Shown here: piece by piece, positions 5,844-23,018 of the stretch | Numbering within the stretch: position 1 is the stretch's first letter | Layout: each line of letters begins with the position of its first letter | IMG/VR virus record: IMGVR_UViG_3300017958_000076 | Coordinates: 1 to 23,018 of that record | From: a virus | Reading direction: 5' to 3' (one strand) | DNA length: 23,018 bases | Position numbers and translations under genes: made by a program | Notes under the pieces: model-generated | What the model saw: only the letters and a program-made list of their open reading frames with translations | The model's database searches: none | What the model was told of the DNA's origin: nothing

Positions 5844-5852
5844 TCCTAGCTC

Positions 5853-6449: not shown

Positions 6450-6462
6450 TGTCTCCCCCTAA

Positions 6463-8902: not shown

Positions 8903-8910
8903 GGCTCCCC

Positions 8911-9522: not shown

Positions 9523-12047
9523 CGTCCGGTCCTCCGTCGGCCACCCTGGTTGCCCCTGAGGAGCAGCTTGGCGCTGGAAATCACCATGCGCTCGGCCCGG
9601 TTACGCATGAACCCAAATAGCATGTAGGTAACATGCTCCCCTCGCGTGCTGTCAGACGTTGAGATCGTGTCGTACTCCTCATCATCGATGAGGTACTCAC
9701 CGAACTTGGCCGCGTTGTTGAACGTGCGCTTCGACAGGACGCCAGCGGAGCTCTTGAATCGAGACCGCACCGTCAGCTTGTCTGCTACCTTGTCGATGGC
9801 GTCGTTATCGTAGTCAACAACCTGAGATGACCACCCCTTCCAATCGCCTGCGCTCAAGGTGTTGTACACACCCCAGATCCAGTTCGGCGCCAACTTGTTG
9901 GCGGCCGACCCGTGGCTAAGCATCCGGGTAAACACGCCGCGCGCCCTGGTTTGACCGACGCCATCCTCGCCGACCTGTGCCGACTTGTATGCCCAATCGA
10001 CAGCCTGAGCCTTGACGTTTTCGTCGTCGCCTGGTCCGATGTGGCCGTGCCAGTAGTACACCTCAGCATCTAACCCATTAATTTTAGCGTCAATAAAGCT
10101 CGTAATCATGCCGATGCTGGTGTGGTGGGAATGGTTCTCGATCCAGCGAATGACGAAATAAGGGCTGCGGCCTCCAATGGGGGCATTGAGGGCAACACCG
10201 GCATAGGAGATAGTAGCAGTCCCCGCAGCGATTGTGGCTCCGTACCCAGCCGAGCTTGCCTGCCTTTCCGGGGGCAAGCACATATCGATGTTACCGCCGG
10301 TGTTTCGGATGTCCCAGTGGGTGTTGATGTTGAACACAAGGTCAACCGACGTGATGACAGCGTCAGGGGCCACCTCAACCAGCATGAAGTACTCACCGGT
10401 AATCGGGTCAAGCTCTGGCTTGTGCATGTATATGTACCGGTCACCGACGGCTGACCGCACCTTGTAGGAGCTAGTCACGATGCGCTGATCCTCACCATCG
10501 TCAGATCCGGTGGACCGGTCTAACGCACCGCCTCGGCCTAGCTCCGTGATGTAGTAGCTAAGCGATTTGGAGGAGTTTCCCGTGTCAGCGTCGTTGAACT
10601 GCTCCTCGTCGATGCTGCCAACGCAGAAGATGTCGCCACGCCCGTTGGTTAGGCACACCGGGCTCTTGATGTTCGACACGTCTCGAACGATCGGTATGCC
10701 GACCTCCTGAGCGGCGCATGACGACGTAATCCACATGGACCACTGCCCCTGGGTTAAGCACCAGACGCAGCCGGACTCCGGAAAACTTGCCAGGAGGGCT
10801 CCTGACTGACTGTCATACATGATCGAGACGGGGTCACCCGCATCATACCGGTAGACAGTCTTTGGCATGTCTTCGGTCAGGGGATCTGCCACGCCACTAG
10901 CTGTGAGGTAGTGAGAAAGAGGTGTCGTCACGCTGTCAGTGAAGAAACCTCGTATCGACGAGCTGACCTCATTGACCGACATGCCGTTGGTCGTTGTGTG
11001 TATACCGTCGCTGGCGCACCAGAACACCGATGCCCCAACGGACACCACAGACTCCCGAGATGAGCACCCAGTGCTCGAACTGGCCGTGATGAACCTACCG
11101 TCGGATGCCAGCTCTCCAACCGAGGGCTGGTACAAGAACGTCTTTGACTCCGTGAACACCAGCAGGTTGTCGTTGATCTCCTCGATGGCGACGATGGGAT
11201 CCGTGGTGGGAGCAACAACGAAGTTTCTCGAGGCGTAGGCATTGGGCATTCCGGGGTCCGAGAAGTAAAGCTCGCCCTCCGAAGCTAGCACCATCCTGTT
11301 CTGCAGCGTGGCCATATCAACGACAGCCGGGATCTCCGATGCGTTGCGGTAGTTGTAGCTTTCCGGAGCAATACCGTTAGCGGGGGTCAGCGGGATGATG
11401 AGCGAAGACTCGCTCATGGGCTGATACCAGTTGGGCCGGTTGGCAACATCCAGAGCGGCAGACACGTTCGTCTCACGGAAGTCTGCCGGCAAGTAGACAA
11501 GGAGCCCAGTAGCCTTACTGTTGATGTACACAGCCCCGTCGTGAACATGGAATGAGAAGTCCTCGGACGTAGCGCCAATGAACTTTTGCCTATCGACACT
11601 AGCGTTGGTCTCGTAGCACCCTTTGCGGACGGGCATGCTAACACCGTCAAGCTGCGAGGTGTGCGTGTGGAGGATCTCCTCACGCCGCTTACGGCTATCA
11701 ACATCGAAGATAGAAACAGCCAGGTACCGTCCCCATACGCTACCCTGGGCGCCACCCTGGTTGCCGGTCTGAACCCGAGCCAGGAGAACAGACAGGATCT
11801 GCGTACTGCCCCAGTCGGTAACGAAGCACACCGATCCTAGATGCTTCTCGTAACCCCAGTTCACCGGGGACGTCATCTGGGCTGACATAGTCGTGTCGAA
11901 TGCGCACACCTGGCCGAAGCCAGGTCGTACCTCCCAGTCTCGGCGACCGTCCGGCATCCACATGTTCTGGACCCACGGCCCGCGAGCCGCAGAGGTCTCA
12001 TCGATGCCGCCACTAAGAAGCTCTACCTCGATCCCCCCGACAGCCAT
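9519..12047 (-). CDS. Large tail nozzle / tail hub-like protein (842 aa)
   Basis: An 842-residue, beta-rich protein directly after the head-tail adaptor, whose stop it overlaps (TGATG). The N-terminus (MAVGGIEVELLSGGIDETSA, then NMWMPDGRRDWEVRPGFG) resembles the start of podovirus tail nozzle or stabilisation proteins, which often open with a Gly-rich strand and an N-x-x-x-P-D/G-R...RPGF pattern. Residues about 240-375 carry repeated blade-like units, such as ATLQNRMVLASEGELYFSDP and NDNLLVFTESKTFLYQ, consistent with a beta-propeller as in T7 gp12 or P22 gp10-type proteins. The C-terminal half (about 500-842) is less familiar and makes the protein larger than P22 gp10 (about 470 aa). Assignment rests on gene order, N-terminus and propeller-like repeats. 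Confidence 0.8.
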   Translation of the reverse strand: MAVGGIEVELLSGGIDETSAARGPWVQNMWMPDGRRDWEVRPGFGQVCAFDTTMSAQMTSPVNWGYEKHLGSVCFVTDWGSTQILSVLLARVQTGNQGGAQGSVWGRYLAVSIFDVDSRKRREEILHTHTSQLDGVSMPVRKGCYETNASVDRQKFIGATSEDFSFHVHDGAVYINSKATGLLVYLPADFRETNVSAALDVANRPNWYQPMSESSLIIPLTPANGIAPESYNYRNASEIPAVVDMATLQNRMVLASEGELYFSDPGMPNAYASRNFVVAPTTDPIVAIEEINDNLLVFTESKTFLYQPSVGELASDGRFITASSSTGCSSRESVVSVGASVFWCASDGIHTTTNGMSVNEVSSSIRGFFTDSVTTPLSHYLTASGVADPLTEDMPKTVYRYDAGDPVSIMYDSQSGALLASFPESGCVWCLTQGQWSMWITSSCAAQEVGIPIVRDVSNIKSPVCLTNGRGDIFCVGSIDEEQFNDADTGNSSKSLSYYITELGRGGALDRSTGSDDGEDQRIVTSSYKVRSAVGDRYIYMHKPELDPITGEYFMLVEVAPDAVITSVDLVFNINTHWDIRNTGGNIDMCLPPERQASSAGYGATIAAGTATISYAGVALNAPIGGRSPYFVIRWIENHSHHTSIGMITSFIDAKINGLDAEVYYWHGHIGPGDDENVKAQAVDWAYKSAQVGEDGVGQTRARGVFTRMLSHGSAANKLAPNWIWGVYNTLSAGDWKGWSSQVVDYDNDAIDKVADKLTVRSRFKSSAGVLSKRTFNNAAKFGEYLIDDEEYDTISTSDSTRGEHVTYMLFGFMRNRAERMVISSAKLLLRGNQGGRRRTGR

Positions 12048-12721
12048 CAGTACCCCGTTGTCAGGTTGTAGCCAGGGGCAGGAGCAATGTAGTGGGAACC
12101 ATCAGTGGCCCGACCGACGGCGAGATACGACTCGAGCAGACGCTCCTTCTCCTGCATCAGGGAGAGGAGGGCATTGTTCGGGGCGCCATCTCGGACCATG
12201 TAGTAACGGGCCGCATAGAGGGCGATCAGCGCATGGTGTGAGTCGAACGTGTCGATGAACGTAAGGTCGCCACTTGTCCATGCTCCGGGCGAAATATGAG
12301 TCTCTGGGACGTACTCGATCCGGATAGTTCGCGATGTGTTTTCCGAGAACACAAGGCGTGTGCCGACAAGGCAGTAATCAACTTCAAGGTTATCAACCTG
12401 GGTCGGGTTCTGCCCTGGGGTCATGTACCATGCTAGGTTCCCGCTGCCGTCATCGGCGCCAATGCGAATGATGCGCTGGCACGGGTGAGTAGCCACCCCG
12501 AGAGCGTCCCGGAAAAGGACCCCAGCAAGCTCGTGCTCACGGCCAGAAACACTAACAGACAGGACGGTGTTGTATGCATCCGGCATCGTATCCGATACCA
12601 CCTGGCGGAACTCACGGTAACCCATGTCGCACATGGACTGGGCTTGAGACTCGCTCAGGAAGGTATCATCGGGCTCGTCGATCATCGACCGGAAGAGATC
12701 GTAGACTTCGCCGGTGTTCAT
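12047..12721 (-). CDS. Head-tail adaptor / connector protein (224 aa)
   Basis: A 224-residue protein that starts inside the portal stop (ATGA overlap) and ends in the nozzle start (TGATG). The N-terminus (VYDLFRSMIDEPDDTFLSES, then MCDMGYREFRQVVSD) is a helical pattern typical of podovirus adaptor proteins, which attach under the portal. A beta-rich middle follows with EVDYCLVGTRLVFSENTSRTIRIEYV split across about 110-138. Then a C-terminal helical region (from about 155, ALIALYAARYYMVRDGAPNN) has the Y-A-A-R-Y-Y and E-K-E-R-L-L features common in such adaptors. Its place between portal and nozzle matches the T7 gp11 / P22 gp4 position. The family-level call is good; no closer relative is named. 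Confidence 0.8.
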   Translation of the reverse strand: MNTGEVYDLFRSMIDEPDDTFLSESQAQSMCDMGYREFRQVVSDTMPDAYNTVLSVSVSGREHELAGVLFRDALGVATHPCQRIIRIGADDGSGNLAWYMTPGQNPTQVDNLEVDYCLVGTRLVFSENTSRTIRIEYVPETHISPGAWTSGDLTFIDTFDSHHALIALYAARYYMVRDGAPNNALLSLMQEKERLLESYLAVGRATDGSHYIAPAPGYNLTTGY

Positions 12722-14619
12722 CCGCCACCTCCCATCGGGGTACGACGAAGGCCACGCTCTGGCACCTCATCGACCATCTGCTGAGCGATCTGCATGGTCC
12801 CCATGCGCCGGTATTCCTCTTCGCCCTGAATGGCCGACACAGGAGACTGGTACGAGGCCTCGATCTGCGCCTCGCCTTTATCCGACGACCCGACTCGTGG
12901 GAACACCGTGCGCTTGATGTTCTCTTCTGCCGCCTGAGGGTCAGGCATACCGAAGGTGATGATCGATGCGTAGATGTCCCGGATGTACGCCTGGCGTTCG
13001 TAGGGAAGCTCGTAGTACTCAGCGTTTCGCATGAACTGACCGAATACGTCTTGGAACGCTTTGAGGTCATCAGTCGGGAACACCTCGACCTGAGCCCCAG
13101 CAGCCGCTGCCATGAGAATATCGTTGGCATGGGCGATAGACTGCATACGCTCGGTGACGAAGGAGTTACCGGTGCTGAACTTGAGCTCCCGGAGGGCGGT
13201 CTCTTTGTCGATCAGGCCCATCTCGAGAAGGTCCATGATGCGCTGATCTCGGTCCTGCTTCTCGTTGCGGAACAAGGAACCTGCCTCGATGAATACCTCA
13301 GGATCATCAACAAGATCAGTCGCCTTCAGGTAGTTGAAGACGACTTTACCCAGACCGTCCATCATGCGCATCATCCGAGGCTCATTGTAGTACTTGCGCA
13401 TCAGGATGAGCACGGTCTTTCCGAGGTCCTCGGTAGCCCGCTCGATGTCGTTCTGGGTCGTCTGAAGCTGGGTCATGTCACGACCGGATAGCGCCTCGAC
13501 GGCCTTGCCAGAGGTGACACCGACAGCCCGCTTTCCAAGCGACGTGGCATGGATACCGCTAACGTCCATCATCTCCGATGCAAGCTGAGCAGCGTTCTGC
13601 AGCACAAAGCCAGGCAGCGAGGGGGGCGACACCGGGGTGGGAGCCCCACCTGCCGGGTTGTAGTACACCTTCTCACCCTTGCGAGACGTGATAGAGTTGG
13701 CGCTAACGCCAGCTGTCTTCGGGATCAACCACTTGGGGTTACCGATAAGCTCTGCGTTATCAATGATTTGGCTGCGGGTCTTGTTGTAGTTAACCTGCAG
13801 GTCTAGGAGGGGCTCGATGGCACCCATGCCAAACAGGCGCCCTGGGATCTTGGTGTATCGAACGAACTGCACCGGCATGACATCACCCTCCCATTTCGTC
13901 TCGAAGAGGTAGGTGCTGTCGAGCAGGATCTTGCGATCACCGTTGCGGAAGTAGACGTCGAAGATCTCGAGACGGTCTTTCAGTTGCCTGGTCTCGCTGG
14001 ACATGAACGGCAGACGCTTCTGGCGCATCGCTTCGTCCATCTCAGCGGCCTGCATAATCACCTTCTTGTGATTGGGGTAGGCCTCTGCCAGGTCTTCTCG
14101 GTTGACGATTTTCGCCACGCCAACCCAGTTGGACTCTTCGGGGTTCGTCACACCAGGCTCGAAGTAGAGCATGTACGGCGACACAGTCTCAGTGATGATA
14201 TTCTTGCCGGTGTACCGGGTCAGAAACCCAGCGTTGCCCGTGCTGAGCAACCAGCCAACCAACTCACTGTACCGCTTACTCATACGAGATGCCTGCCAGT
14301 AGTACTGAAGGGCAGCCTCGCTGCTCTGGGCCTTAATGATATCCTCTGCGCTGGGTGATGCCGGGATGACCGTGGTGCCTGGGTACGCCACCTCGAGACG
14401 GCTCTGCAGGTTTCGGTACATGTTCAGGATGAGGTTCACCGTCACAGATGAACCCCTCACCTTTCGGCGGATCACATCACCAGACTTCGCCTCGACCTCA
14501 ACGTGCTGGCGCCCCTGCAGGAACAGGAGGCACGTATCCCAGATACGCTGATACGACGTGCGGTCGGTGTTGAATGACTCGATCGCCTGCTTGAGCTTCT
14601 CAGCTTTCGGGCTCTTCAT
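12718..14619 (-). CDS. Portal protein (633 aa)
   Basis: The dodecameric DNA gate of the capsid by inference. The N-terminal region (about 1-140) runs through a helical segment, NLILNMYRNLQSRLEVAYPG and QYYWQASRMSKRYSELVGW, typical of podovirus-type portals where an early helix precedes a wing region. Mid-protein, PVQFVRYTKIPGRLFGMG and IEPLLDLQVNYNKTRSQIID (about 250-285) match the conserved portal stretch in which GxGxxxxLxxLQxxxNxxxS-like patterns occur. A helical crown/stem region follows (about 385-470). The C-terminus is Gly-rich. It lies after the capsid genes and immediately before the adaptor, whose start overlaps its stop. The ATG at 14619 has AAGG about 7 nt upstream. The length suits portals of this kind. 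Confidence 0.9.
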   Translation of the reverse strand: MKSPKAEKLKQAIESFNTDRTSYQRIWDTCLLFLQGRQHVEVEAKSGDVIRRKVRGSSVTVNLILNMYRNLQSRLEVAYPGTTVIPASPSAEDIIKAQSSEAALQYYWQASRMSKRYSELVGWLLSTGNAGFLTRYTGKNIITETVSPYMLYFEPGVTNPEESNWVGVAKIVNREDLAEAYPNHKKVIMQAAEMDEAMRQKRLPFMSSETRQLKDRLEIFDVYFRNGDRKILLDSTYLFETKWEGDVMPVQFVRYTKIPGRLFGMGAIEPLLDLQVNYNKTRSQIIDNAELIGNPKWLIPKTAGVSANSITSRKGEKVYYNPAGGAPTPVSPPSLPGFVLQNAAQLASEMMDVSGIHATSLGKRAVGVTSGKAVEALSGRDMTQLQTTQNDIERATEDLGKTVLILMRKYYNEPRMMRMMDGLGKVVFNYLKATDLVDDPEVFIEAGSLFRNEKQDRDQRIMDLLEMGLIDKETALRELKFSTGNSFVTERMQSIAHANDILMAAAAGAQVEVFPTDDLKAFQDVFGQFMRNAEYYELPYERQAYIRDIYASIITFGMPDPQAAEENIKRTVFPRVGSSDKGEAQIEASYQSPVSAIQGEEEYRRMGTMQIAQQMVDEVPERGLRRTPMGGGG

Positions 14620-14628
14620 TGCTTGGCC

Positions 14629-14799
14629 TTACTCGGCAGGCTTAGGCCCCGGAACGCAGTTTCCTCGACGAGAGCAGATCATAATGTAATCCGCCCGCTC
14701 CTTATCGGTCATGGGCTTGCGCTCAACGTGCTTGGTGTAGAGATGCTGTCGGCGCTCCCAGGCCTTCAGCGCATCGCTCTTCTTGGTCTTCTTAGTCAT
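14629..14799 (-). CDS. Small basic protein (56 aa) with two cysteines, unknown function
   Basis: A short gene between the portal and a 107-aa protein. The ATG at 14799 has an AGGTGGG ribosome site about 4 nt upstream and the frame ends with TAA at 14629, 9 bases before the portal ATG. The 56-residue product is rich in Lys and Arg at the N-terminus (MTKKTKKSDALKAWERRQ) and has two cysteines six residues apart near the C-terminus (ICSRRGNCVPGPK), followed by Pro/Gly. This could bind DNA or a partner protein, or hold a metal only if dimeric, since two Cys alone are too few. The ribosome site, its fit in an otherwise empty gap and its coding-like composition support reality. The family is not recognised. 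Confidence 0.75.
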   Translation of the reverse strand: MTKKTKKSDALKAWERRQHLYTKHVERKPMTDKERADYIMICSRRGNCVPGPKPAE

Positions 14800-14824
14800 T
14801 TATCCCACCTCTATTCGCATTCTA

Positions 14825-15148
14825 TCAGTACATATCGAAAATACGCTGCAGCCGCTGGTACTCGCTTTCAGCTTTCCCGGCCTCGCCCATGTCAGATACA
14901 GCCTTAGACACCATTCCGCCGGCTGCTCCACCCAGCGACGCTCCGACGCCAGCCAGGGCAGGGTTACCAGTTGCTAATGCAGCACCAGCACCAAGGAGAC
15001 TACCGACGGTAGAAGCCAACCCAGACGTCTTCTGGGATGCGGCCTTTGCCTCGGCCCGCTTTCTGGCTGCGATCTTCAGCGCCTCTTCGGCCTTGACTCG
15101 GCCGTCAGCACGGAACGCATCAATGAGGGCGGCGCTAGGGTTTCTCAT
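14825..15148 (-). CDS. Ala/Gly-rich small virion-type protein (107 aa)
   Basis: Residues 1-42 are charged and helical with many Ala, Lys and Glu. Residues about 43-82 form a long small-residue hydrophobic stretch (Gly, Ala, Ser, Leu; for example VGSLLGAGAALATGNPALAG) with several GxxxG-like spacings. The C-terminus is charged (EYQRLQRIFDMY). Such Gly/Ala segments occur in small internal virion or ejection proteins and could insert in a membrane. The start ATG overlaps the stop of the 51-aa gene upstream (ATGA). It sits between the capsid and portal genes, so a minor capsid or internal protein is plausible; the family is not known to me. Confidence 0.75.
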   Translation of the reverse strand: MRNPSAALIDAFRADGRVKAEEALKIAARKRAEAKAASQKTSGLASTVGSLLGAGAALATGNPALAGVGASLGGAAGGMVSKAVSDMGEAGKAESEYQRLQRIFDMY

Positions 15149-15300
15149 CGCTCCTGCTCCTCGTACAAGTTTGACACCGAGAACTCGGCGTCAGCATCAT
15201 CCTCGATTTGCGGGACAAACGCCAGCCTGAACAGGTGGAGCCCCCAAAATAGGAGCCCCACCTGTCCAAGCTCGGCCAGTGCTGTGACTAGGTCAAGCAC
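15145..15300 (-). CDS. Small hydrophobic protein (51 aa, GTG start) between capsid and 107-aa gene
   Basis: The frame fills the otherwise empty space after the capsid gene exactly. Its GTG start shares a base with the capsid stop (TAGTG), and its TGA overlaps the following ATG (ATGA). The product has a hydrophobic segment at about residues 13-32 (QVGLLFWGLHLFRLAFV) and an acidic tail (about 33-51, with EDDADAEF and YEEQE). One transmembrane helix is likely. There is no clear Shine-Dalgarno, so translation would depend on coupling to the capsid gene. The 15231-15265 hairpin lies within it. It could be a minor virion or membrane protein; its function is unknown. Confidence 0.65.
   Translation of the reverse strand: MLDLVTALAELGQVGLLFWGLHLFRLAFVPQIEDDADAEFSVSNLYEEQER
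15231..15265 (-). promoter_or_regulatory. Stem-loop just downstream of the capsid gene
   Basis: An 8-bp perfect inverted repeat (ACAGGTGG / CCACCTGT) flanks 19 bases. In the minus-strand RNA a small internal loop and four further pairs (CUCC with GGGG, one G-U) would close a UAUUUU loop. It lies about 35 nt after the capsid stop. No U-run follows, so it is not a standard terminator; it may be an mRNA 3'-end stabiliser, a processing site, or just coding sequence of the 51-aa gene. Confidence 0.45.
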
Positions 15301-16646
15301 TAGACGCCAGCGTAGCTGATGCCGACGAGGATGCCGTTGCGGTTCGGACGCTCGCAGACCACGTTGTAGTAGTAGCGAACGAAGGCCTCGTAGGCGTCGC
15401 GGTTAGCGACACGACTGAGGACCGAGCCGTCCAGATCCGCCAGGCCAATCTCAGTGATCTGAGCGATGGACCACGACTTCAAGCTGAGGAAGATCAGCAG
15501 GCCCTTGCCGCAGTGGCGAGCCACCTTGAGCGGGATGCCATTGAAGCTGAGGGAACCCATGTTGAAGCCAGCATCGCCGCCATCAACGCTCTTGCTCAGG
15601 CTAGTAGCGTTGTCGGTGACGCTCGTGAACGACATCAGGGCGGTGTACTCCTGCCGGAAGATGTGGTTCGCGATCATGCAGTCAGGTGCGCTACCTCCAG
15701 CCTTCAGAGCGATGGAGTCCAGCATGGCCTGCATGCGCTTGGTCGCCAGGGCCGTGACGGCACCAGCACCAGGGTTGCTGGAAGCGATGGTGTTCTCGAC
15801 GCTCTCGATGGTGGACCGAAGAGGCTCAAGACTGGCGGTGTCGCGCAGGTTGCCGTGGAAACTCACGGTGCCGCCAGCTAGGTCGATGTAGCCACCACCC
15901 AGGTTGCCGTAGATACCCATGGCCTCGTCGGTGGTGACGTAGGCGGGGGTGGACAACGGGTCAGTTGCAACAACAACGGTAGCAGCAGCGCCCTTGGCCA
16001 GGCCGGTAAGGTCCACAGTGTTGGGAGCGGCAGCGGCCGTAGTGAAGTCAACAGCACCGGGGGTGACGCTCTGACGAACATGAAGGGCGCCAGCACCACC
16101 AGTAGTGATCTCCTCGTAGGTGTCAGTACGAACGAGGATACACGGCACCGGGGTGGCGGCAGCCAGGGGCAACCCTTCGAGGTTGCCGGACAGCGGCATG
16201 GTAGCGGCCGCAGCGGAGCGGTCGAACACGAATCCGACGTTGCCGCCGCCGATGAAGCAGGACGCGTCGCCCTGGTTCTTCACGCTCTCGATGGCGCCAT
16301 CAAGCTCGCTCTGCAGAGCGTTGACGAACGCGCCAGCGTTGGCCTTGGCTTGCTCGATGGTCGGGCCGGTGATGTCCATACGGCCGTAGAGGTACTTGGC
16401 CTGAATGGTCAGGTCAGCGTACTTCTGACGGTCGGCGGTCGGAAGATCGTTGTCCTCAGCACGGAAGCCGGCGGATTCGTTGCGGCCAATGCGCACAGGC
16501 ATGATAGCCTTGCGACCGGTCCAACTGACCTTCTTCTTGTTGAAGAGTTCAAAGACCAGCATCTCGTTGTTGAGCTGGTCGCGAATGGGACCCTGATAAA
16601 AATCCTTCAGGATCTTATCGAGGCTAGTGAGGGTAGAGACAGCCAT
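15300..16646 (-). CDS. Major capsid protein (448 aa)
   Basis: This is the main shell subunit by context and sequence style. It starts MAVSTLTSLDKILKDFYQGP, with an N-terminal arm, then VFELFNKKKVSWTGRKAIMP and AKYLYGRMDITGPTIEQAK (about 28-125), typical of HK97-fold capsid proteins in which a helix-rich N-arm and E-loop precede the P-domain. A Gly/Ala/Thr-rich beta insert spans about 150-260. Then come helical P-domain segments, with a C-terminal strand ending GILVGISYAGV. It directly follows the scaffold gene with an AAGGAAAT ribosome site 7 nt before the ATG. No capsid maturation protease gene is visible next to it. The stop overlaps the 51-aa gene. Confidence 0.9.
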   Translation of the reverse strand: MAVSTLTSLDKILKDFYQGPIRDQLNNEMLVFELFNKKKVSWTGRKAIMPVRIGRNESAGFRAEDNDLPTADRQKYADLTIQAKYLYGRMDITGPTIEQAKANAGAFVNALQSELDGAIESVKNQGDASCFIGGGNVGFVFDRSAAAATMPLSGNLEGLPLAAATPVPCILVRTDTYEEITTGGAGALHVRQSVTPGAVDFTTAAAAPNTVDLTGLAKGAAATVVVATDPLSTPAYVTTDEAMGIYGNLGGGYIDLAGGTVSFHGNLRDTASLEPLRSTIESVENTIASSNPGAGAVTALATKRMQAMLDSIALKAGGSAPDCMIANHIFRQEYTALMSFTSVTDNATSLSKSVDGGDAGFNMGSLSFNGIPLKVARHCGKGLLIFLSLKSWSIAQITEIGLADLDGSVLSRVANRDAYEAFVRYYYNVVCERPNRNGILVGISYAGV

Positions 16647-16663
16647 TGTCTATTTCCTTATTG

Positions 16664-17461
16664 TTATGACCCGAACATCGCCGCCAGAGCGGCGTGGGCC
16701 TCTTGCATGTTTTTAGGCCGACCAACACTGTTGGCAGCCGAAGAGCGAGATCGACCGGACCGTCCGGCAACCTCAGGGGGAACGCCACCAGCGGCCTCTC
16801 CGTCATCCTCGGAGTCATTCTGGCTGGCAATGAAGCGAGCGATAGCTGCTTCTTCGATTTCAGCGATTTGCTCGCTGTACTCAGAAGCCAGGGACCGGAG
16901 ATCCTGGCTGGGATCATTAATGATGGACTGAAGGAGCATATCACGGCTCACACCGGGGTAGTCCTCAGCGATCTGAGACAACTCCCGCTCGAGCTTGGCC
17001 TGCTCATTGACCACCATCATCTCGTGCATCTGACTCTGCAGACGCTGGATGTCCGACATTTCACCGCCGGCATCCTGGCCCTGATCCGGCTGGAAGGCTT
17101 CCGCCTCGTTGCCGGGACCGAACAGCCTGGCCATCGACCGAAGCTGATCCATCTCCTGCTGCATAGCTTCGAACTGCTCACGCATTTCTTCGGCTTCAGC
17201 ACGGGCCTCATTTCGAGCAGTAATCACCTGCGAGAAGCGGGAGTACGGCACGTTGTGGCCATGCTCCTCCTCCTGCTCGTGGTCATCCTGTTCGGATGCG
17301 TACTGCTCTTCGCTGTCTGCCCCGTCGCCTTCTTCGGGACTGGCTTCGACCGATTGCTCGGTGTACTCACCAGACGGTTGATCCGTGTCGGACGCAGCGG
17401 GAAGTTCAGACTGCAATGCCCCCATGAGGGCGCTCGTTTGCTCGGCGCTTAGCAACGACAT
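16664..17461 (-). CDS. Capsid scaffolding protein (265 aa)
   Basis: An acidic, mostly helical protein. The N-terminus (about 20-70) is rich in Glu and Asp, then HNVPYSRFSQVITARNEARA (about 68-88). VPYxRF is a motif I know from phage scaffold proteins. A long coiled coil follows (about 80-200), with REQFEAMQQEMDQLRSMARL and SQIAEDYPGVSRDMLLQS. The C-terminus is basic and small (SGRSRSSAANSVGRPK, about 236-252) and ends in a short Ala-rich helix, as expected for the capsid-binding end. It lies one gene before the major capsid protein. The ribosome site AAGGAGG is near-perfect, 8 nt upstream of the ATG, suiting a protein made in large amounts. Confidence 0.88.
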   Translation of the reverse strand: MSLLSAEQTSALMGALQSELPAASDTDQPSGEYTEQSVEASPEEGDGADSEEQYASEQDDHEQEEEHGHNVPYSRFSQVITARNEARAEAEEMREQFEAMQQEMDQLRSMARLFGPGNEAEAFQPDQGQDAGGEMSDIQRLQSQMHEMMVVNEQAKLERELSQIAEDYPGVSRDMLLQSIINDPSQDLRSLASEYSEQIAEIEEAAIARFIASQNDSEDDGEAAGGVPPEVAGRSGRSRSSAANSVGRPKNMQEAHAALAAMFGS

Positions 17462-17505
17462 GTTTTACGCCTCCTTACATGCAGATAACGCCCTGCACGG
17501 CGAGA

Positions 17506-19101
17506 TCACCAGACCCCAATATCGTTCAACACCTCATGGACGGGATCTGGTGAGAAGTCCTCTGAGGTCGCTTCGGAGAAGAGTCGCCCAGTTGCTTGCT
17601 CCCACTTGAGCATCTCTTTGACGCCCGTGGGTCGCACTTTGGCGGCAACTTCTTCCACAAGATCATGTACTTGGTCTAGTCCCATAAGCGCAAGTGCTAC
17701 TGCCATGACCATATCATCATGCTTACCTGAGGGGGCTTCAACCTTACCTCTGGCGTTGAATGCTAGGCTATTCGCCTCGCTGATGAACGCACCGTCGATG
17801 ACTTCAACTCGGTTGCTGGTGATGAACTGGTAGAGCCTGCTCATCATCAGATTGCGGCTCTTCGAGTTGGTGTTGAAGCCGTAGCGTGGCGTCCACTGGT
17901 TCTTCGCTTTGTCCCAGTGCTGATCTCGGAACATGTGGGGGTAGGCCTTAGACATCATGTACTCGATGATCGACAGGCCGTAGCTGTTGCTTTCGATGAC
18001 AGCCAGGGCCTCGTACTTCATCGCCATGTCGTAGACTTCCTCTTTGTAGTCCGACGGCGGATCCTTGTCGTAGTACGACGCAACCATCTCGATCTTGTTG
18101 TCGTTCGTGACGTCGAGGACCATGAACGCTGAATAATCACCACCGGGACTGCCAGAAGCAGTATCAACACCAATCGTGTAGATTCGATACGGCTGAGGTT
18201 CTTTGTAAATCTTAATACCACGGGAATACCCTGTGACTGGCCACGGGTCGGGGAAGAACCGCTGTCCGGATGTGACGAAGGCGAGTTCCGCTGTCGCCGG
18301 GAACTCCTGATTGAAGATGAGCCAGTTGTTGGCACACTTGGTTCTCAACTGATTAACGAACCAGTTGGACTGCGTGCTGGTGAGCTTGTGCTTCCGGGTG
18401 TACTCCCGCTCCTTCTCCGTCAGGTCCTTGAACCTGCAGTGCGGGAGGTTGTAGCGTTCGTCGATCTTCCACCCGAGGAAGATCTTATCGAATCCGTTGT
18501 CTTCGCCCCAAAGCTCGTGGGCCTTGTTCAGGCCGTTGGCGGTGGATTCGAAGATGATCGTGGCGTTGGCTCCGCCGGTCTGGAAGAGGGCTGCGATGGC
18601 TGTGTCGATGTTCGACCAGAAGGCGTACTCGGACGCGTGGATGTACTGGTAGGTCTGACCACGGAAGCTCTCAGATCCGGCGCTACCGACAACGATCTTC
18701 GATCCGGTCTTGAACTCCAGCCTGTTGTCCCGGTTCCTCACTGCTGAGACCTTCATCTCTGCGGGGAGGTTGGAGTACATGAACTGGTACATGGTGAAGA
18801 GTTCTTTGGCCGCCGGGTCCGTATGGGCCACGACAGCGACTCTGGTGTTCTTATTAAACAACGCCTTCCACAGGTAGTAGGCGGCGATGACCGTGGATGA
18901 CCCGAGCTTACGGGCCTTCAGGACCATGGTGTGGTTGTTCCGCATGGTTCGCGAGATGATAAGCCGCTGCGCCTCATTGAGCTTAAGCGGCAAGACCGCC
19001 GAGTCCATCCCGACGATCTTGACGTAGTTCTCAGCGAAGTAGTGGAAGCTCTTGGCGCACTTCTTCAGTTCGCTAGCGATGTGGTCCCTGGTATTCAGCA
19101 C
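17506..19101 (-). CDS. Terminase large subunit (531 aa), ATPase-nuclease DNA packaging motor
   Basis: All signature elements are visible. The N-terminal ATPase has a Q-motif-like LNEAQRLIIS (41-50), a Walker A-type KARKLGSST (63-70), a Walker B-like HASEYAFW (155-162) with the catalytic Glu at 158, and a coupling motif FESTANG (184-190). The C-terminal RNase H-fold nuclease has IGVDTASG (310-317) with Asp313, AVIESNSYG (367-375) with Glu370, and KHDDMVMA (460-467) with Asp462/Asp463. The start is a GTG six bases after the H1-like gene's stop; no strong Shine-Dalgarno is present, so coupling is likely. Length is normal for this family. It is separated from the small subunit by about 2.9 kb, which is unusual. 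Confidence 0.97.
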   Translation of the reverse strand: MLNTRDHIASELKKCAKSFHYFAENYVKIVGMDSAVLPLKLNEAQRLIISRTMRNNHTMVLKARKLGSSTVIAAYYLWKALFNKNTRVAVVAHTDPAAKELFTMYQFMYSNLPAEMKVSAVRNRDNRLEFKTGSKIVVGSAGSESFRGQTYQYIHASEYAFWSNIDTAIAALFQTGGANATIIFESTANGLNKAHELWGEDNGFDKIFLGWKIDERYNLPHCRFKDLTEKEREYTRKHKLTSTQSNWFVNQLRTKCANNWLIFNQEFPATAELAFVTSGQRFFPDPWPVTGYSRGIKIYKEPQPYRIYTIGVDTASGSPGGDYSAFMVLDVTNDNKIEMVASYYDKDPPSDYKEEVYDMAMKYEALAVIESNSYGLSIIEYMMSKAYPHMFRDQHWDKAKNQWTPRYGFNTNSKSRNLMMSRLYQFITSNRVEVIDGAFISEANSLAFNARGKVEAPSGKHDDMVMAVALALMGLDQVHDLVEEVAAKVRPTGVKEMLKWEQATGRLFSEATSEDFSPDPVHEVLNDIGVW

Positions 19102-19107
19102 CGGTCA

Positions 19108-20436
19108 CTACTTCATCGGGATTTCCTTGGCGGCAATACGGATAGCACGCACAACCTTGATAGCCTCACCAGGCGTCATCTTGTCCGGGTTTATTTTAAG
19201 TTCCCGAAGGATGGCTTTTGCATCACCACCCCGCAGTTGATTCCATTTGATCCTTTTGAGGTCAACCTTCCCGAGCTTTCCGTTACCCTGCATGGCCTCA
19301 GCTAGCTTCATCGGGGCTTTCTTGGCTACAGCAGCAGCTTTGCTTTTCTGCTTGGGCTTAGCCTGCTTGGATTCGGCCTTCTTCGGCTTGACATTCTGCT
19401 GTTTGGGTTCGGCCTTCTTCGGTTTGACCTGCTTGGGCTTCGGCTGTGGCTTAAACTTCACCTTAGGCGCCAGCCCCTCGTTGCCGACGTTGTAGTCCTT
19501 CCCGCCCTTGATGCGGCTGCTCGGCTTCTTCTTTGGACCTTTTTTGTCCGCCAACTTCCTTGCTTGGGCGTACGCTTTCTCGGAAGCCCTCTTCTCAGCC
19601 GCCTTCCGGAGTTTCGTCTCAGCACGCTTAGCAGCGGCCTTAGCTTTCTTCTGCGCTGCCTTTTCAGCGGCATCCTTGGCGGCGCCTGCTTCCATCTTAG
19701 CATTTCTCGAGAACTTCGGCTTCGAACGCTGAGGCTTGAAGGCGGCCTCGTCAGATGGCTTCTGCTTTGTTGCCTTGGCGCTAGCTTTAGCCTCCCTTTT
19801 GGGGGTCGATTTAACACCGACGTTCTTACGCCCCGTAACCTTGCCTTTCTCGTACGTCACCTTCTTATACTTAGGTTCTACGACGCTCTTCTTGACTTGC
19901 TTGGCAGCTTCCTTTCGGGTTGCTGTTTTAGCCGCCTGTTCGGCGCCCTTTTCGGCCGTCTCCTTGGCTGCTTCCTTTGCAGCCTTCTGGGCGGCCTTGC
20001 GCCGGAACAAACGCTTGCCGCCCTCCTTGGCAGCCTTCTTCGCTCCTTCTTTGGCCAGCAGTGCTCCGCCACCACGAGCAAGCGCACCCAAACCACCGGT
20101 AAGCAGTGTTGATCCGATAGCGCCGTAGGTTTCAAGCATCCCCTCGTCAGTCAGGTTTTCCCACCTGTCCTTCCGGCTCTGCCTCTTGCGGGCAATGCCC
20201 TGCCGAACCTTAGACTCGGCCATCACCTTCCGGTAACGCTCGGTCTCAGCGGCGGTAGCCTTCCGATCGCCTACCAGCAGGTCGCCGGGCCTCAGGTCTG
20301 ACACGAGGGCAGCGATCTTGCGCCGTTTCTCCTCTGGGATGTCGTATTCCTTGCCCTGGTGGGTCACCTTGCCGGTCTGCGCATAACGAGCAAGCTGCTT
20401 GATGTTCTCTTTTGACAGGCGTTTGGGGGCGGCCAT
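19108..20436 (-). CDS. Histone H1-like Lys/Ala/Pro-rich protein (442 aa)
   Basis: An extremely basic, low-complexity protein. The N-terminal about 95 residues are more ordered (for example DIPEEKRRKIAALVSDLRPG). Residues about 104-128 form a Gly/Ala/Leu hydrophobic stretch (YGAIGSTLLTGGLGALARG). Residues about 130-300 are long Ala/Lys/Glu helices of the AAKEAAKETAEKGAEQAAK kind. Residues about 325-375 are Lys/Pro-rich, with a 12-residue tandem unit (VKPKKAEPKQQN then VKPKKAESKQAK). The last about 50 residues look ordered again, with ILRELKINPDKMTPGEAIKV. This resembles the C-terminal tails of histone H1 and bacterial H1-like proteins, which condense DNA. In a phage it could bind packaged DNA or ride with the genome into the cell; both are inferred. 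The ATG at 20436 follows a GGAG about 10 nt upstream. Confidence 0.8.
   Translation of the reverse strand: MAAPKRLSKENIKQLARYAQTGKVTHQGKEYDIPEEKRRKIAALVSDLRPGDLLVGDRKATAAETERYRKVMAESKVRQGIARKRQSRKDRWENLTDEGMLETYGAIGSTLLTGGLGALARGGGALLAKEGAKKAAKEGGKRLFRRKAAQKAAKEAAKETAEKGAEQAAKTATRKEAAKQVKKSVVEPKYKKVTYEKGKVTGRKNVGVKSTPKREAKASAKATKQKPSDEAAFKPQRSKPKFSRNAKMEAGAAKDAAEKAAQKKAKAAAKRAETKLRKAAEKRASEKAYAQARKLADKKGPKKKPSSRIKGGKDYNVGNEGLAPKVKFKPQPKPKQVKPKKAEPKQQNVKPKKAESKQAKPKQKSKAAAVAKKAPMKLAEAMQGNGKLGKVDLKRIKWNQLRGGDAKAILRELKINPDKMTPGEAIKVVRAIRIAAKEIPMK
19372..19428 (-). repeat. Near-identical 21-nt repeats with 36-nt period inside the H1-like gene
   Basis: Two 21-base units at 19372-19392 and 19408-19428 differ at one base (TTCGGCCTTCTTCGG then c or t, then TTGAC on the + strand) and start 36 bases apart. 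They encode the 12-residue VKPKKAE... tandem unit. A repeat of this kind can change copy number by slippage and lengthen or shorten the tail. Confidence 0.8.
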
Positions 20437-20440
20437 GGTC

Positions 20441-20911
20441 TCAGTGCTCCGTTTCGGATTCGAAGTATGCGCCGACGGCCCCGATAAGGACGCTTTCGAC
20501 GATGCGGTCCCGCAGCTTCTGGCGTGAATCTTCCATCATGATGTTGTGGAGGTCGCTCAGGACTTTGACGAAGCCCCGGCAGAAACGCTCCATCTCCTTC
20601 GGGTCCTCATCGATTTCGGGGGGGAAGGTTTCGACCCATTCTCGGGCCTTGGCGATGTAGTCTGCGGCCCCTCGCTGCTTCTTCCGGAACATGGACCGGT
20701 TGAGGCCTGAGAGGAAGTCATCGAGGTGGGTGAGTTCGATGCGGGTGATCTTGTAGGTGGCGCCGTAGGACTGCTCGCCAGTGATCGCCTTGGTCTCGTT
20801 GCGCCCTTCGAGGGCCGTCATGCCTGCCAGGTAGATACTATTGAGGGTCTCAGTGATCCGGAGCTCTACGTTGCTGCTGTGCATACGGAGTTTTACTTGT
20901 CGTTGGTTCAT
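20441..20911 (-). CDS. Uncharacterised protein (156 aa), between membrane cluster and H1-like gene
   Basis: A soluble, mixed-charge, helical protein. It has no signal peptide or membrane segment. The N-terminus includes NVELRITETLNSIYLAGMTA (14-33); the centre has LTHLDDFLSGLNRSMFRKKQ (about 60-79) and REWVETFPPEIDEDPKEMER (about 90-109); the C-terminus LIGAVGAYFESETEH. The ATG follows the preceding stop directly (TAG then ATG), with only a weak GGTGA ribosome site, and the next gene begins 4 bases after its stop. It is probably made with its neighbours. I do not recognise the family and propose no function. Confidence 0.72.
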   Translation of the reverse strand: MNQRQVKLRMHSSNVELRITETLNSIYLAGMTALEGRNETKAITGEQSYGATYKITRIELTHLDDFLSGLNRSMFRKKQRGAADYIAKAREWVETFPPEIDEDPKEMERFCRGFVKVLSDLHNIMMEDSRQKLRDRIVESVLIGAVGAYFESETEH

Positions 20912-21121
20912 CTACTTCACCAAAAAATTCTGAACGGCGAACTGGATCGCCGGTAGCAGCAGGACGATGATGGCTGTCTGCCTGTTCACGGTGGCCTCGA
21001 GGGTATCGAGCTTGTCACCGAGCTTCTCGGTGCGCCGCTCAGCGTCCCTAATACGCTCGGAGTTGCCTCGGATAACTGCCTCTGAGCGAGCCATCCTAGT
21101 TTCCATCGTTTCCGTGCCCAT
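20912..21121 (-). CDS. Small XhlA-like coiled-coil and C-terminal TM protein (69 aa), possible holin-accessory
   Basis: The chosen start is the ATG at 21121, where it overlaps an upstream-frame stop as TGATG and has GGAG about 7 nt upstream. In-frame GTG at 21133 and ATG at 21127 are less well placed. Residues about 10-45 form a charged coiled coil (for example RIRDAERRTEKLGDKLDTLE). Residues about 49-66 form a hydrophobic segment (TAIIVLLLPAIQFAVQNFL), and the protein ends in VK. This plan, N-terminal coiled coil plus one C-terminal membrane helix, is that of XhlA-type hemolysin/holin-associated proteins. A role with the holin-like protein in host lysis is plausible, but no endolysin is present in the window. 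Confidence 0.75.
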   Translation of the reverse strand: MGTETMETRMARSEAVIRGNSERIRDAERRTEKLGDKLDTLEATVNRQTAIIVLLLPAIQFAVQNFLVK

Positions 21122-21302
21122 CACCATCTCCACTCAAGGCCAGCGACGGCCTGCCATTTTGGCATGTCCCCTCGCCATCCCCCTGAAACTTCTGCGGCTG
21201 CTGTAACATCAAGTTTTCTCCTGATCCGGTGACGAACACCAGCGCGAGCATTCCACCCAGAATCATCCCCGATAAGAGACAAATCAAGCCCACCAGAATC
21301 AA
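21096..21302 (-). CDS. Possible small membrane protein in alternative frame (TTG start, 68 aa)
   Basis: This frame is the same as that of the holin-like gene, continuing after its TGA. It begins with a hydrophobic segment (residues 1-25, LICLLSGMILGGMLALVFV) and ends with a Gly/Asp-rich tail. The only starts are a TTG at 21302 or internal ATGs, none with a good ribosome site; a CTG at 21318 would have GGAGG at about 8 nt. Third-position G/C (about 63% by my count) is coding-like here, and higher than in the competing W-R-W frame. It overlaps the next gene's start by 26 bases. It could be real, nested with the other frame, or a by-product. Confidence is low. Confidence 0.35.
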   Translation of the reverse strand: MILVGLICLLSGMILGGMLALVFVTGSGENLMLQQPQKFQGDGEGTCQNGRPSLALSGDGDGHGNDGN

Positions 21303-21327
21303 AAGGGTCGAGACGTACAGGTCTCAG
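21121..21327 (-). CDS. Beta-strand-rich small protein ending in W-R-W, reached by -1 frameshift or non-standard start
   Basis: From the CTG at 21327 (overlapping the holin-like TGA as CTGA) the frame encodes 68 residues to a TGA that overlaps the next ATG (TGATG). The sequence shows three alternating hydrophobic strands: GWNARAGVRHRI, KLDVTAAAEVSGGW and KWQAVAGLEWRW, separated by short basic or polar turns. This alternation and aromatic C-terminus are typical of outer-membrane or other beta-sheet proteins. No ATG or GTG precedes these strands; the only alternatives are CTG at 21327 and TTG near residue 16. The frame is open upstream through the holin gene, so a -1 shift at 21345-21351 would give a 143-aa fusion. 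Which route operates is not settled. Confidence 0.55.
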   Translation of the reverse strand: MRPVRLDPFDSGGLDLSLIGDDSGWNARAGVRHRIRRKLDVTAAAEVSGGWRGDMPKWQAVAGLEWRW

Positions 21328-21551
21328 CCCTCCGAGTCCTCGGGCTTTCCCGAGGCAGCGGCCTCCAGAGCCGCACGGCGCTGCTTGGCCACGTCTTCCA
21401 TGCTGATCCCCAGGATGCCAGCCACAGCACCAAGAACGCTGGCGATGATCGCCTCGGTCGGCAGGTTGGGCCACAGGTGGTTGCACACGATCGGCAGGAC
21501 AGCAGCAGCAACGCTGAGCCACAGCTTACGGGACTTCATTTTCTCGCTCAT
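21324..21551 (-). CDS. Holin-like two-TM membrane protein (75 aa)
   Basis: A charged start (MSEKMKSRK) leads to two hydrophobic segments, about 10-26 (LWLSVAAAVLPIVCNHL) and 33-50 (EAIIASVLGAVAGILGIS), followed by a charged helical tail (EDVAKQRRAALEAAASGK, 52-69) ending in DSEG. Size and two-helix plan match small class II-type holins. The ribosome site GGGGAGGAG lies 5 nt before the ATG. It starts an apparent lysis-like cluster with the XhlA-like protein. The holin role is inferred; small membrane proteins of other roles look alike. A shift site sits near its end. Confidence 0.7.
   Translation of the reverse strand: MSEKMKSRKLWLSVAAAVLPIVCNHLWPNLPTEAIIASVLGAVAGILGISMEDVAKQRRAALEAAASGKPEDSEG
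21345..21351 (-). promoter_or_regulatory. Candidate -1 frameshift heptamer G GGA AAG
   Basis: The heptamer lies in the holin-like frame as TC(G GGA AAG), exactly the X XXY YYZ phase and the same heptamer as the lambda gpG/gpGT shift site. A GGAGG lies about 10 nt upstream, the spacing that stimulates -1 shifting in dnaX-type sites. Immediately downstream a GC-rich inverted sequence (CCGA-GGAC-TCGG with flanking GC) can form a short hairpin, though with almost no spacer. A shift would join residue 69 of the holin-like protein to 74 residues ending W-R-W. Confidence 0.5.
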
Positions 21552-21604
21552 TCGGTCTCCTCCCCGCCGGTAACGACGGTAACCATATCAATCATTTTCA
21601 CCAT
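21548..21604 (-). CDS. Possible mini-ORF (18 aa) between the basic 99-aa gene and the holin-like gene
   Basis: An ATG at 21604 inside the end of the upstream gene (8-base overlap with its stop) opens 18 codons (MVKMIDMVTVVTGGEETE) closing as ATGA on the holin-like start. Two further in-frame ATGs follow. It may merely carry the ribosome through to the next gene or be chance. No good ribosome site is present. Confidence 0.25.
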   Translation of the reverse strand: MVKMIDMVTVVTGGEETE

Positions 21605-21897
21605 TTCGCTTTGTCAGCCCAGAACGCTGCTGACATCTTACCCTTTGCGATATTCTTTGCGTGTCTGGATTTGAATGACTTGCGTTTCATCTTCATGCGT
21701 TCGGACTCACCGGCCTTGGGTTTACCTGCTGTGCTTGCCCCCTGCTCACCGAACCGAATCAGCTTAACCTGGTTGCCCTCTTTAGCCATCACCACATGAG
21801 ACTTTTTCGGGTGGTTAGGCGTGCGCTTCGTGACGTTGAAGCCCTTGAGACCGAGCTTCTTCATCAGGCGGCGGGCTGCTTCGATCCGCTCAGTCAT
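21598..21897 (-). CDS. Conserved small basic phage protein (99 aa)
   Basis: The protein has an N-terminal helix (RIEAARRLMKKLGLKGFNV), a strand-rich middle with TPNHPKKSHVVMAKEGNQVK and LIRFGEQGA (26-54), and a very basic C-terminus: KRKSFKSRHAKNIAKGKMSA followed by AFWADKAKW. I recognise this overall pattern (LIRFGxQG...KRKSFKxRHAKNIAKGKMSAxxW) from many phage genomes, where the protein is small and of unknown function. The start overlaps the 41-aa gene's stop (ATGA). It lies next to the small terminase, so a packaging or head role is possible. No biochemical role is claimed. Confidence 0.82.
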   Translation of the reverse strand: MTERIEAARRLMKKLGLKGFNVTKRTPNHPKKSHVVMAKEGNQVKLIRFGEQGASTAGKPKAGESERMKMKRKSFKSRHAKNIAKGKMSAAFWADKAKW

Positions 21898-22019
21898 TTC
21901 TTCTTCCGACGGAGCCGGCTCGCCGCTGCCTTGCGGGCTTTGAACTTGGCAGGGCCGGAGATGTACCCGGTGCCCTCCTTGAGGACATCTCCTGCCGAGG
22001 TTTTCTTCTTCGCAACCAT
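21894..22019 (-). CDS. Very small Lys/Arg-rich protein (41 aa)
   Basis: The ATG at 22019 follows the small-terminase stop by one base, with GGGGGAAG about 4 nt upstream, and the stop overlaps the next ATG (ATGA). The product is strongly basic (MVAKKKTSAGDVLKEGTGYI, then SGPAKFKARKAAASRLRRKK) with no hydrophobic segment. Such a peptide could bind nucleic acid or the terminase. Perfect tiling and a good ribosome site support it. The family is not recognised. Confidence 0.65.
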   Translation of the reverse strand: MVAKKKTSAGDVLKEGTGYISGPAKFKARKAAASRLRRKKK

Positions 22020-22020
22020 A

Positions 22021-22533
22021 TCACTTCCCCCCGTTAATCACGGACAGTTTGCCCTCCTGCTTGTCCAAGAAGTCCTCGAGGCTGCTAGCCCCCTGCTTCT
22101 CGTCCATACCCCAGGAGCGGCGCTCGTTCTTCTGAAGGTTGCTCGCCACATCGCCAGCCACCTTGAGAGCCTGCAGAACCTTCTGAGGAGCAACCTCAGG
22201 GTCGTTGGCCATTTCCTCGATGCGAGTCACGGTCTGGTCCAGCAAGCCAGCGATGCGGTGCGAGATGCCCTTGTGGCGCTCCAGCACACCCCGCATGCTC
22301 TGCTCGGTCTCCTCGATCACAGCGATCACACGACCCTCAGCAGCTTCCTTAGCCTCCTGAATGCTGGCCTTCACCTGCGTGATAGGAAGGTCCCACTGCT
22401 CCTTGGTCTTCCGGTTCCACACCGTCTGCTCAGACATCCCGTAGACATCAGCCAAGGTCTTCACAGGAACACCGTTAGCCCAATCCCGACGGACCATCTC
22501 CCAGACCTTCTCCGGAATCTTCTGACGAGCCAT
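22021..22533 (-). CDS. Terminase small subunit (170 aa), DNA-binding packaging initiator
   Basis: The N-terminus carries a helix-turn-helix: KVWEMVRRDWANGVPVKTLA leads into DVYGMSEQTVWNRKTKEQW (about 9-47), with the V-P-V-K-T-L-A-x-x-Y-G-M-S-E-x-T-V-x-x-R arrangement common in phage small terminases. Long helices follow (about 55-135, with AEGRVIAVIEETEQSMRGVL), as expected for an oligomerising core, and a short polar tail. It is the first gene of the minus-strand module, after the 485-base leader. The ATG at 22533 has GGGAG about 6 nt upstream. The small subunit usually lies beside the large one; here they are split. Family match is by motif and location. Confidence 0.85.
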   Translation of the reverse strand: MARQKIPEKVWEMVRRDWANGVPVKTLADVYGMSEQTVWNRKTKEQWDLPITQVKASIQEAKEAAEGRVIAVIEETEQSMRGVLERHKGISHRIAGLLDQTVTRIEEMANDPEVAPQKVLQALKVAGDVASNLQKNERRSWGMDEKQGASSLEDFLDKQEGKLSVINGGK

Positions 22534-22572
22534 GAGAAACTCCCTACCGACTCACCTCCCCTACCCCAAACT

Positions 22573-22695
22573 CTACCCCCAGAGCAACAACTCCCAAAAC
22601 CGAGGGTCAACTCGGACTGCCATTGTGGCAGGTGAGCCGCTAAACATTCTGATTCCTGAGGAAAATCTTAGATCCTTGAGTTTCTTGCGGCCCAT
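22573..22695 (-). CDS. Possible small ORF (40 aa) in the leader
   Basis: From the ATG at 22695 the frame reads MGRKKLKDLRFSSGIRMFSG and later TMAVRVDPRFWELLLWG, 40 residues to a TAG 39 bases before the small-terminase ATG. A TTG start at 22770 would give 65 residues. The VRVDPRFWELL stretch is faintly like the strand-helix of ribbon-helix-helix proteins. No ribosome site precedes the ATG. Probably not a gene, but kept because it is compact and adjacent. Confidence 0.22.
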   Translation of the reverse strand: MGRKKLKDLRFSSGIRMFSGSPATMAVRVDPRFWELLLWG

Positions 22696-22806
22696 GGTAA
22701 GGTACTGTCGTTGGCTTTCGCCACTGCGGAAGGCGGCGATCAAAAAGCCCGCGCAACACAAACCAAACAAATGAGACGAAGCTCGCTGCTCATTGAGCGG
22801 CTCCCT

Positions 22807-22816
22807 GGGGGGGGGG
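22807..22816. repeat. 10-base G homopolymer
   Basis: Ten consecutive G on the + strand in the non-coding leader. Such tracts vary by slippage and can alter promoter spacing; they are also prone to sequencing error. Confidence 0.85.
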
Positions 22817-23018
22817 AATAGGTAGACTTCGAAAATCTGTCTCGAGTTTGTGGGGTGATGTCACATGAAACCGCAACCACACCATCACGACCACCCCCAC
22901 GGCACCAGTGCAGCCACGCCAACATGGGCTAGCTAGCACCTAGCGCCAGCGGGTCGGCTGTGCCCCTAGGTTGCGCCCCTCCCGGTGTGTTGTTGGCCAC
23001 CCTGTTTCAGTCTTAACC

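What the first reader, a model, noticed from the sequence alone, without database searches (positions are those of the whole stretch)
19108..20436. Large histone H1-like protein encoded between the lysis-like cluster and the large terminase
A 442-aa protein with H1-like Ala/Lys and Lys/Pro tails, a Gly/Ala hydrophobic segment at about 104-128, and ordered ends is unusual directly before a large terminase. Its ordered N- and C-termini suggest it is more than a random basic tail. It might be carried in the capsid with the DNA, act in packaging, or condense host DNA. The hydrophobic segment would also allow a membrane-crossing, ejection-type protein.
Basis: partly seen in the sequence, partly recalled or inferred. 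Interest (0 to 1): 0.65.

Follow-up and report, generated by a model that had tools for sequence, protein, structure and literature searches.

The report
Swappable histone-tail-like phage protein
Next to its DNA-packaging motor gene, an uncultured phage carries a gene for a large, very positively charged, DNA-binding-looking protein that its close relatives replace wholesale with differently built but equally charged versions, which suggests a fast-evolving accessory protein that coats or travels with the phage DNA.

Summary
The ORF is real: 442 aa, minus strand, 20436..19108, net charge +77, with a K/A-rich middle and a K/P tail. It sits between a conserved 156-aa gene and TerL of a circular ~35.5 kb genome of an uncultured tailed phage. 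It is not a linker histone, nor any recorded family (Pfam, PHROGs, NCBIfam, PADLOC, PDB, phage and plasmid records).

New here: four relatives (TerL 66-71% identical) carry a similarly large, basic ORF (net +84 to +116) directly before TerL, but the sequences are barely related. Two of them, 92% identical in DNA over 4 kb starting exactly at the ORF/TerL junction, share no DNA and 25% amino acids inside it: the gene is swapped as a cassette. In a sister clade the 156-aa homologue overlaps TerL and the slot is empty. So the gene is accessory and hypervariable, conserved in charge and place rather than sequence.

Best reading: a non-specifically DNA-binding internal (head-carried, co-injected) protein behaving like T4's basic, polymorphic internal proteins; virion location and DNA binding are inferred. 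The 'membrane-crossing' segment is unremarkable against shuffles, and the idea of a SAP/Rho_N-like C-terminal domain failed its tests.

The parts
19108..20436 (-). H1-tail-like basic protein gene, 442 aa, net charge +77
20296..20412 (-). residues 9-47, predicted helix / beta-hairpin / helix N-terminal domain
   Evidence: AlphaFold2 pLDDT 68-81 by block over residues 11-50; no family match when searched alone
20053..20127 (-). residues 104-128, Gly/Ala-rich hydrophobic stretch, not a convincing transmembrane helix
   Evidence: max KD19 1.14; 65/500 shuffles as high
19537..20058 (-). residues about 127-300, Lys/Ala-rich region, predicted long helices at low confidence
19342..19464 (-). residues about 325-365, Lys/Pro-rich disordered tail
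19111..19320 (-). residues 373-442, small helical C-terminal domain
   Evidence: pLDDT 86 when modelled alone; no significant fold or profile match
20441..20911 (-). 156-aa conserved neighbour; its homologue directly overlaps TerL in the sister clade, which defines the slot
   Evidence: window-L012 score 417 and window-L102 score 124 against shuffles of about 30 +/- 5
17506..19101 (-). large terminase (TerL), other border of the slot
   Evidence: phrog_2 E 4e-33, Terminase_6N and 6C
16664..17461 (-). hyperacidic scaffold-like protein (net -38), a conceivable partner for basic cargo
   Evidence: weak Phage_scaffold match E 0.012; charge

Best explanation
The gene is an accessory cassette in the late packaging operon. 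It codes for a highly basic, largely disordered protein that binds DNA without sequence preference through its K/A helices and K/P tail, as linker-histone tails do. Most likely it is enclosed in the head (perhaps drawn into the procapsid by the hyperacidic scaffold), sits on the packaged DNA and enters the host with it, where it screens the incoming genome or acts on the host. In behaviour this matches T4's basic, polymorphic internal proteins IPI-III. Shown: the ORF, its charge, its place, its replacement between close relatives, and the empty slot in the sister clade. Inferred: DNA binding, presence in the virion, co-injection, protective role.
For: Net +77 to +116 in all five members, directly before TerL. 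Accessory: the 156-aa homologue overlaps TerL in the sister clade. Allele swap: L014 and L015 are 92% identical in DNA over 4 kb from the ORF/TerL junction onward, but share no DNA match and 25% aa identity inside the ORF; TerL between them is 96% and the scaffold 93%. Late co-directional operon TerS to TerL, scaffold, MCP, portal, with no promoter-like site of its own. Scaffold net -38 to -55 in the sampled members. Precedent: T4 internal proteins are basic, about 300 copies each, bind DNA in low salt, are non-essential, poorly conserved and replaced by other basic proteins in relatives, are injected, and IPI and probably IPIII counter host defences (PMC9026906, PMC9391042).
Against: No virion data and no binding data. 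No capsid-targeting sequence identified in this gene. The gene lies beside TerL rather than among the scaffold or ejection genes. The window protein has no significant sequence similarity to the four relatives in the same slot, so a shared function rests on place and composition. Only five members are known, three of them truncated at the 5' end.
Confidence: 0.4

Rival explanations
1. An intracellular nucleoid-acting protein made late in infection that condenses host or replicated phage DNA (Hc1-like action) and does not enter the virion.
For: H1/Hc1-like tail composition; jumbo moraphages carry a histone H1-like protein (PF07432) for which genome compaction was proposed (PMC12619734).
Against: Lies in the late packaging operon rather than among early takeover genes; a conserved action on DNA would not by itself explain replacement of the whole gene between near-identical phages.
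Confidence: 0.22
2. A packaging accessory that works with TerL or the portal, for example holding concatemeric DNA near the motor or neutralising DNA as it is packed.
For: Always directly before TerL in the five members; stop codon 6 nt before, or overlapping, the TerL start in most.
Against: TerL and the 156-aa gene function without it in the sister clade; TerL stays 96% identical while the neighbour is replaced, so there is no co-variation.
Confidence: 0.15
3. A membrane-crossing ejection (pilot) protein that forms part of a DNA conduit.
For: Gly/Ala hydrophobic stretch followed by basic helices; the complete relative L012 has one at a similar position.
Against: Hydrophobicity is below the usual 1.6 limit and reached by 13% of shuffles. 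Better candidates exist: the 695-aa and about 1309-aa proteins further down the late region (role inferred from size and position). Conduit proteins would be expected to be conserved.
Confidence: 0.08
4. A recombination-prone filler: the slot collects any basic low-complexity ORF, and the protein has little function of its own.
For: Window and relatives share composition but not sequence.
Against: ORFs of 442 to over 600 codons stay open, in frame and strongly basic in all five phages, with phage-typical codon use in the window; relatives retain conserved segments.
Confidence: 0.1

Closest known systems
Bacteriophage T4 internal proteins IPI, IPII, IPIII
   Same: Basic, accessory, highly variable between close relatives; at least one counters a host defence
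   Different: T4 IPs are about 8-20 kDa with a cleaved N-terminal capsid-targeting sequence; this protein is 442 aa, lies next to TerL, and no such signal or prohead protease was found; no sequence homology was detected
Histone H1-like proteins of moraphages and Chlamydia Hc1 (PF07432)
   Same: Lys/Ala/Pro-rich tail composition expected to bind DNA
   Different: No match to PF07432 or to the linker-histone globular domain; larger
Podovirus ejection proteins (T7 gp14-16, P22 gp7/16/20)
   Same: Late genes of short-tailed phages; T7 gp15 and gp16 also show DNA binding
   Different: Those are folded and conduit-forming; other genes of this phage fit that role better
SAP / Rho_N / HeH helix-loop-helix nucleic-acid-binding domains
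   Same: The C-terminal model has two helices joined by an extended loop; the top PDB fold match is a SAP domain (E 2.4)
   Different: No profile match; all fold E-values above 1

Membership tests
Linker histone H1 / Hc1-like (PF00538, PF07432) | winged-helix globular domain, or the Hc1 profile | tested here: not met
   No Pfam match of the whole protein up to E 5, and none to these families for the ends up to E 10
Linker histone H1 / Hc1-like (PF00538, PF07432) | long Lys/Ala/Pro-rich basic tail | tested here: met
   K 20.6%, A 17.0%, net +77; K/P tail 325-365
T4-type internal proteins | presence inside the virion and injection with DNA | not testable with these tools
   needs virion mass spectrometry
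T4-type internal proteins | capsid-targeting sequence cleaved by a prohead protease | tested here: inconclusive
   No prohead protease family was matched among the late proteins searched in PHROGs; only the window and L012 have complete N-termini, and their similarity is weak (58 of 2000 shuffles as good)
T4-type internal proteins | basic, and polymorphic between close relatives | tested here: met
   25% aa identity and no DNA match between L014 and L015 although flanking DNA is 92% identical
Podovirus ejection (pilot) protein | membrane-active or transmembrane segment | tested here: not met
   max KD19 1.14, 65/500 shuffles as high
SAP / Rho_N / HeH domain | profile match | tested here: not met
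   no match in the window; hhalign probability below 1% against SAP and Rho
SAP / Rho_N / HeH domain | helix-extended loop-helix fold | tested here: inconclusive
   model pLDDT 86; best PDB match is the MKL1 SAP domain at E 2.4, TM 0.44

The most novel reading that the evidence does not exclude
These phages keep a dedicated cassette slot before TerL for interchangeable, head-packaged, histone-tail-like proteins, recruited into the procapsid by charge pairing with a hyperacidic scaffold and diversified by host defences: an internal-protein system unrelated in sequence to T4's, with a short basic tag (RKAAEAKxRKK) as a possible loading or recombination signal in the sister clade.
Probability: 0.15. 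Interest if true: 0.75.

Novelty: new variant of a known kind. Interest (0 to 1): 0.47.

Why it matters
If the protein is in the virion, this would be a second, independently built set of hypervariable basic internal proteins outside the T4 group, and a marked locus (between the 156-aa gene and TerL) where new phage-carried, early-acting proteins could be collected from metagenomes. It also shows that H1-like composition can be kept while sequence is exchanged, which homology-based annotation misses.

Tried and rejected
(1) Homology search for the protein in phages, plasmids, Pfam, PHROGs, NCBIfam, PADLOC and PDB: nothing significant except a low-complexity match to an unknown PHROG (E 0.0028). 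(2) SAP/Rho_N/HeH identity of the C-terminus: suggested by eye and by the top fold match, rejected by profile tests. (3) A repeat motif (AKxxLxxxG...KMSxxQA) that I first thought the window shared with its relatives: real, two copies each, in L012, L014 and L016, but the window's C-terminus scores only -0.5 bits while the best of 2000 block-shuffles score up to 13.8, so it is not supported in the window. The alignment A4 used for the C-terminal structure model was built on that idea, so its pLDDT should be read with care. (4) Homology of the N-termini of window and L012: 58 of 2000 shuffles score as well, weak at best. (5) Hosts or prophages through TerL in 84,980 genomes: none. (6) More alleles through the 156-aa neighbour or through the L012/L015 C-terminal domain in IMG/VR: only the known contigs. 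(7) Full-length structure model: mean pLDDT 52.7, not used for fold search. (8) First scripts for the repeat test failed on HMMER options and gapped input and were redone.

Full report
OBSERVATION. The ORF is genuine. It lies on the minus strand, ATG at 20436, stop ending at 19108, 442 aa. TerL begins with GTG at 19101, six bases after the stop; upstream, the 156-aa gene ends at 20441. Composition: K 20.6%, R 7.2%, A 17.0%, net charge +77. K/A blocks fill about 127-300 and a K/P tail about 325-365. Its codon usage resembles the other late genes. No promoter-like site was found between 18900 and 23018, in keeping with one late operon. The Gly/Ala stretch exists, but its best 19-residue hydropathy is 1.14 and 65 of 500 shuffles of the same protein reach it.

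CONTEXT. The window is an IMG/VR contig. A 35,612-nt contig overlaps both of its ends with 11 differences in all and has an identical 123-bp terminal repeat, so the genome is a circular assembly of 35,489 bp. The gene order on the minus strand is TerS-like, small basic protein (phrog_7595), holin-like (weak), XhlA-like (weak, by sequence look only), 156-aa protein, the H1-like gene, TerL, acidic scaffold-like protein, MCP, glycine-zipper protein, portal and tail or internal virion proteins. MCP and portal are only 20-30% identical to Arthrobacter, Microbacterium and Cellulosimicrobium phages; in Shocker and Jasmine the genes annotated just before TerL are short (about 66-98 codons). A TerL search of 84,980 bacterial and archaeal genomes found no host or prophage.

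RELATIVES. Searching with MCP and TerL gave four relatives (MCP 59-63%, TerL 66-71% identical) with a large basic ORF in the same place: L012 (591 aa, complete), L014 (at least 574), L015 (at least 483), L016 (at least 607), net charges +84 to +116. L014, L015 and L016 are cut by the contig end inside this ORF. The proteins are far more diverged than their neighbours: L014 and L015 are 96% identical in TerL and 93% in the scaffold but 25% in this ORF. In DNA they are 92% identical over 4 kb from exactly the ORF/TerL junction onward, with no DNA match inside the ORF. Drift in a disordered protein would leave DNA similarity between such close relatives; replacement of the whole gene is the simpler reading. 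Pieces are shared mosaically: L014 and L016 are 49% identical over 426 columns, L012 and L015 share their C-terminal half (33%), and L015 shares about 45 residues with L014 and L016. The window protein has no significant similarity to any of them; its membership of the slot rests on place and composition.

EMPTY SLOT. In a sister clade (TerL 57%; L102, L103, L104, L106, L107), a 141-145-aa protein overlaps the start of TerL and there is no H1-like gene. That protein is homologous to the window's 156-aa protein (score 124 against shuffles of 28.8 +/- 4.6). The H1-like gene is therefore an accessory insertion between two core genes (or was lost in the sister clade). The sister clade has other variable basic ORFs further upstream; several, with unlike bodies, end in nearly the same peptide, RKAAEAKxRKK. 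The pattern [KR]KAAE[AKR][KR] occurs, among 4,902 ORFs scanned (redundant loci included), only in these clades; the window protein has one copy at residue 277, which its own composition gives in 1.6% of block shuffles. This is a lead chosen after the fact, not a result.

STRUCTURE. The full-length model is mostly low confidence (mean pLDDT 52.7), with an N-terminal helix-hairpin-helix at 68-81. The last 70 residues model well alone (pLDDT 86). The top PDB match is the MKL1 SAP domain, but at E 2.4, and profile tests against SAP, Rho_N and HeH are negative. I had aligned this end with a repeat in the relatives; a profile of that repeat does not find the window, so that homology is withdrawn.

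MECHANISM. A +77 protein of this composition will very probably bind DNA without sequence preference (inference). A late, accessory, exchanged, basic protein is what T4's internal proteins are: about 300 copies each of basic proteins that bind DNA at low salt, are non-essential, are poorly conserved between relatives and replaced by other basic proteins, and are injected; IPI inhibits GmrSD and IPIII is needed on strain ECOR17 (PMC9026906, PMC9391042). The hyperacidic scaffold (net -38 to -55) offers a plausible way into the procapsid (inference). Against a core packaging role: the slot is empty in the sister clade and TerL does not change when the neighbour is replaced. Against a membrane conduit: the hydrophobic stretch is unremarkable. 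An intracellular nucleoid-condensing role, as discussed for H1-like proteins and Hc1 (PMC12619734), cannot be excluded and is the main rival.

VERDICT. Observation confirmed; interpretation partly supported. Not a histone. A new, hypervariable, sequence-orphan group of H1-tail-like phage proteins in a defined slot beside TerL; function by analogy only.

Noticed in passing
L103 1188-2081, L107 1911-2414 and 3101-3589, L115 321-824 (C-terminal); L102 2764-3312 and L115 1686-2189 (internal): Variable basic ORFs with unlike bodies share the peptide RKAAEAKxRKK, with short DNA similarity at that spot (for example L102 2707-2753 to L107 2369-2413 and 3557-3588); possible loading tag or recombination linker.
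   Followed up: partly
window 14825-15148: 107-aa glycine-zipper-like protein between MCP and portal, with a basic N-terminal region; relatives have it too (L012, L014, L015), some with RKAAEAR; candidate small ejection protein.
   Followed up: no
window 21598-21897: Small basic phrog_7595 protein, extremely widespread (600 or more stretches in IMG/VR, 43 phage records, mostly marine), also resembling part of a 'minor head protein and DNA pilot' family; function unknown.
   Followed up: partly
window 1-5702 and 5580-23018: With contig IMGVR_UViG_3300017969_000001 the genome closes as a 35,489-bp circle (identical 123-bp terminal repeat), although IMG/VR classes the record as linear.
   Followed up: yes
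L012 residues 100-151 of the basic protein: Weak match to circular bacteriocin (uberolysin/circularin) models, below cut-off (NCBIfam E 6e-4, Pfam E 0.007); probably amphipathic-helix similarity.
   Followed up: no
L014, L015, L016 starts: Three of four relatives' contigs break inside the H1-like ORF, which would fit allele diversity or repeats disturbing assembly there.
   Followed up: no
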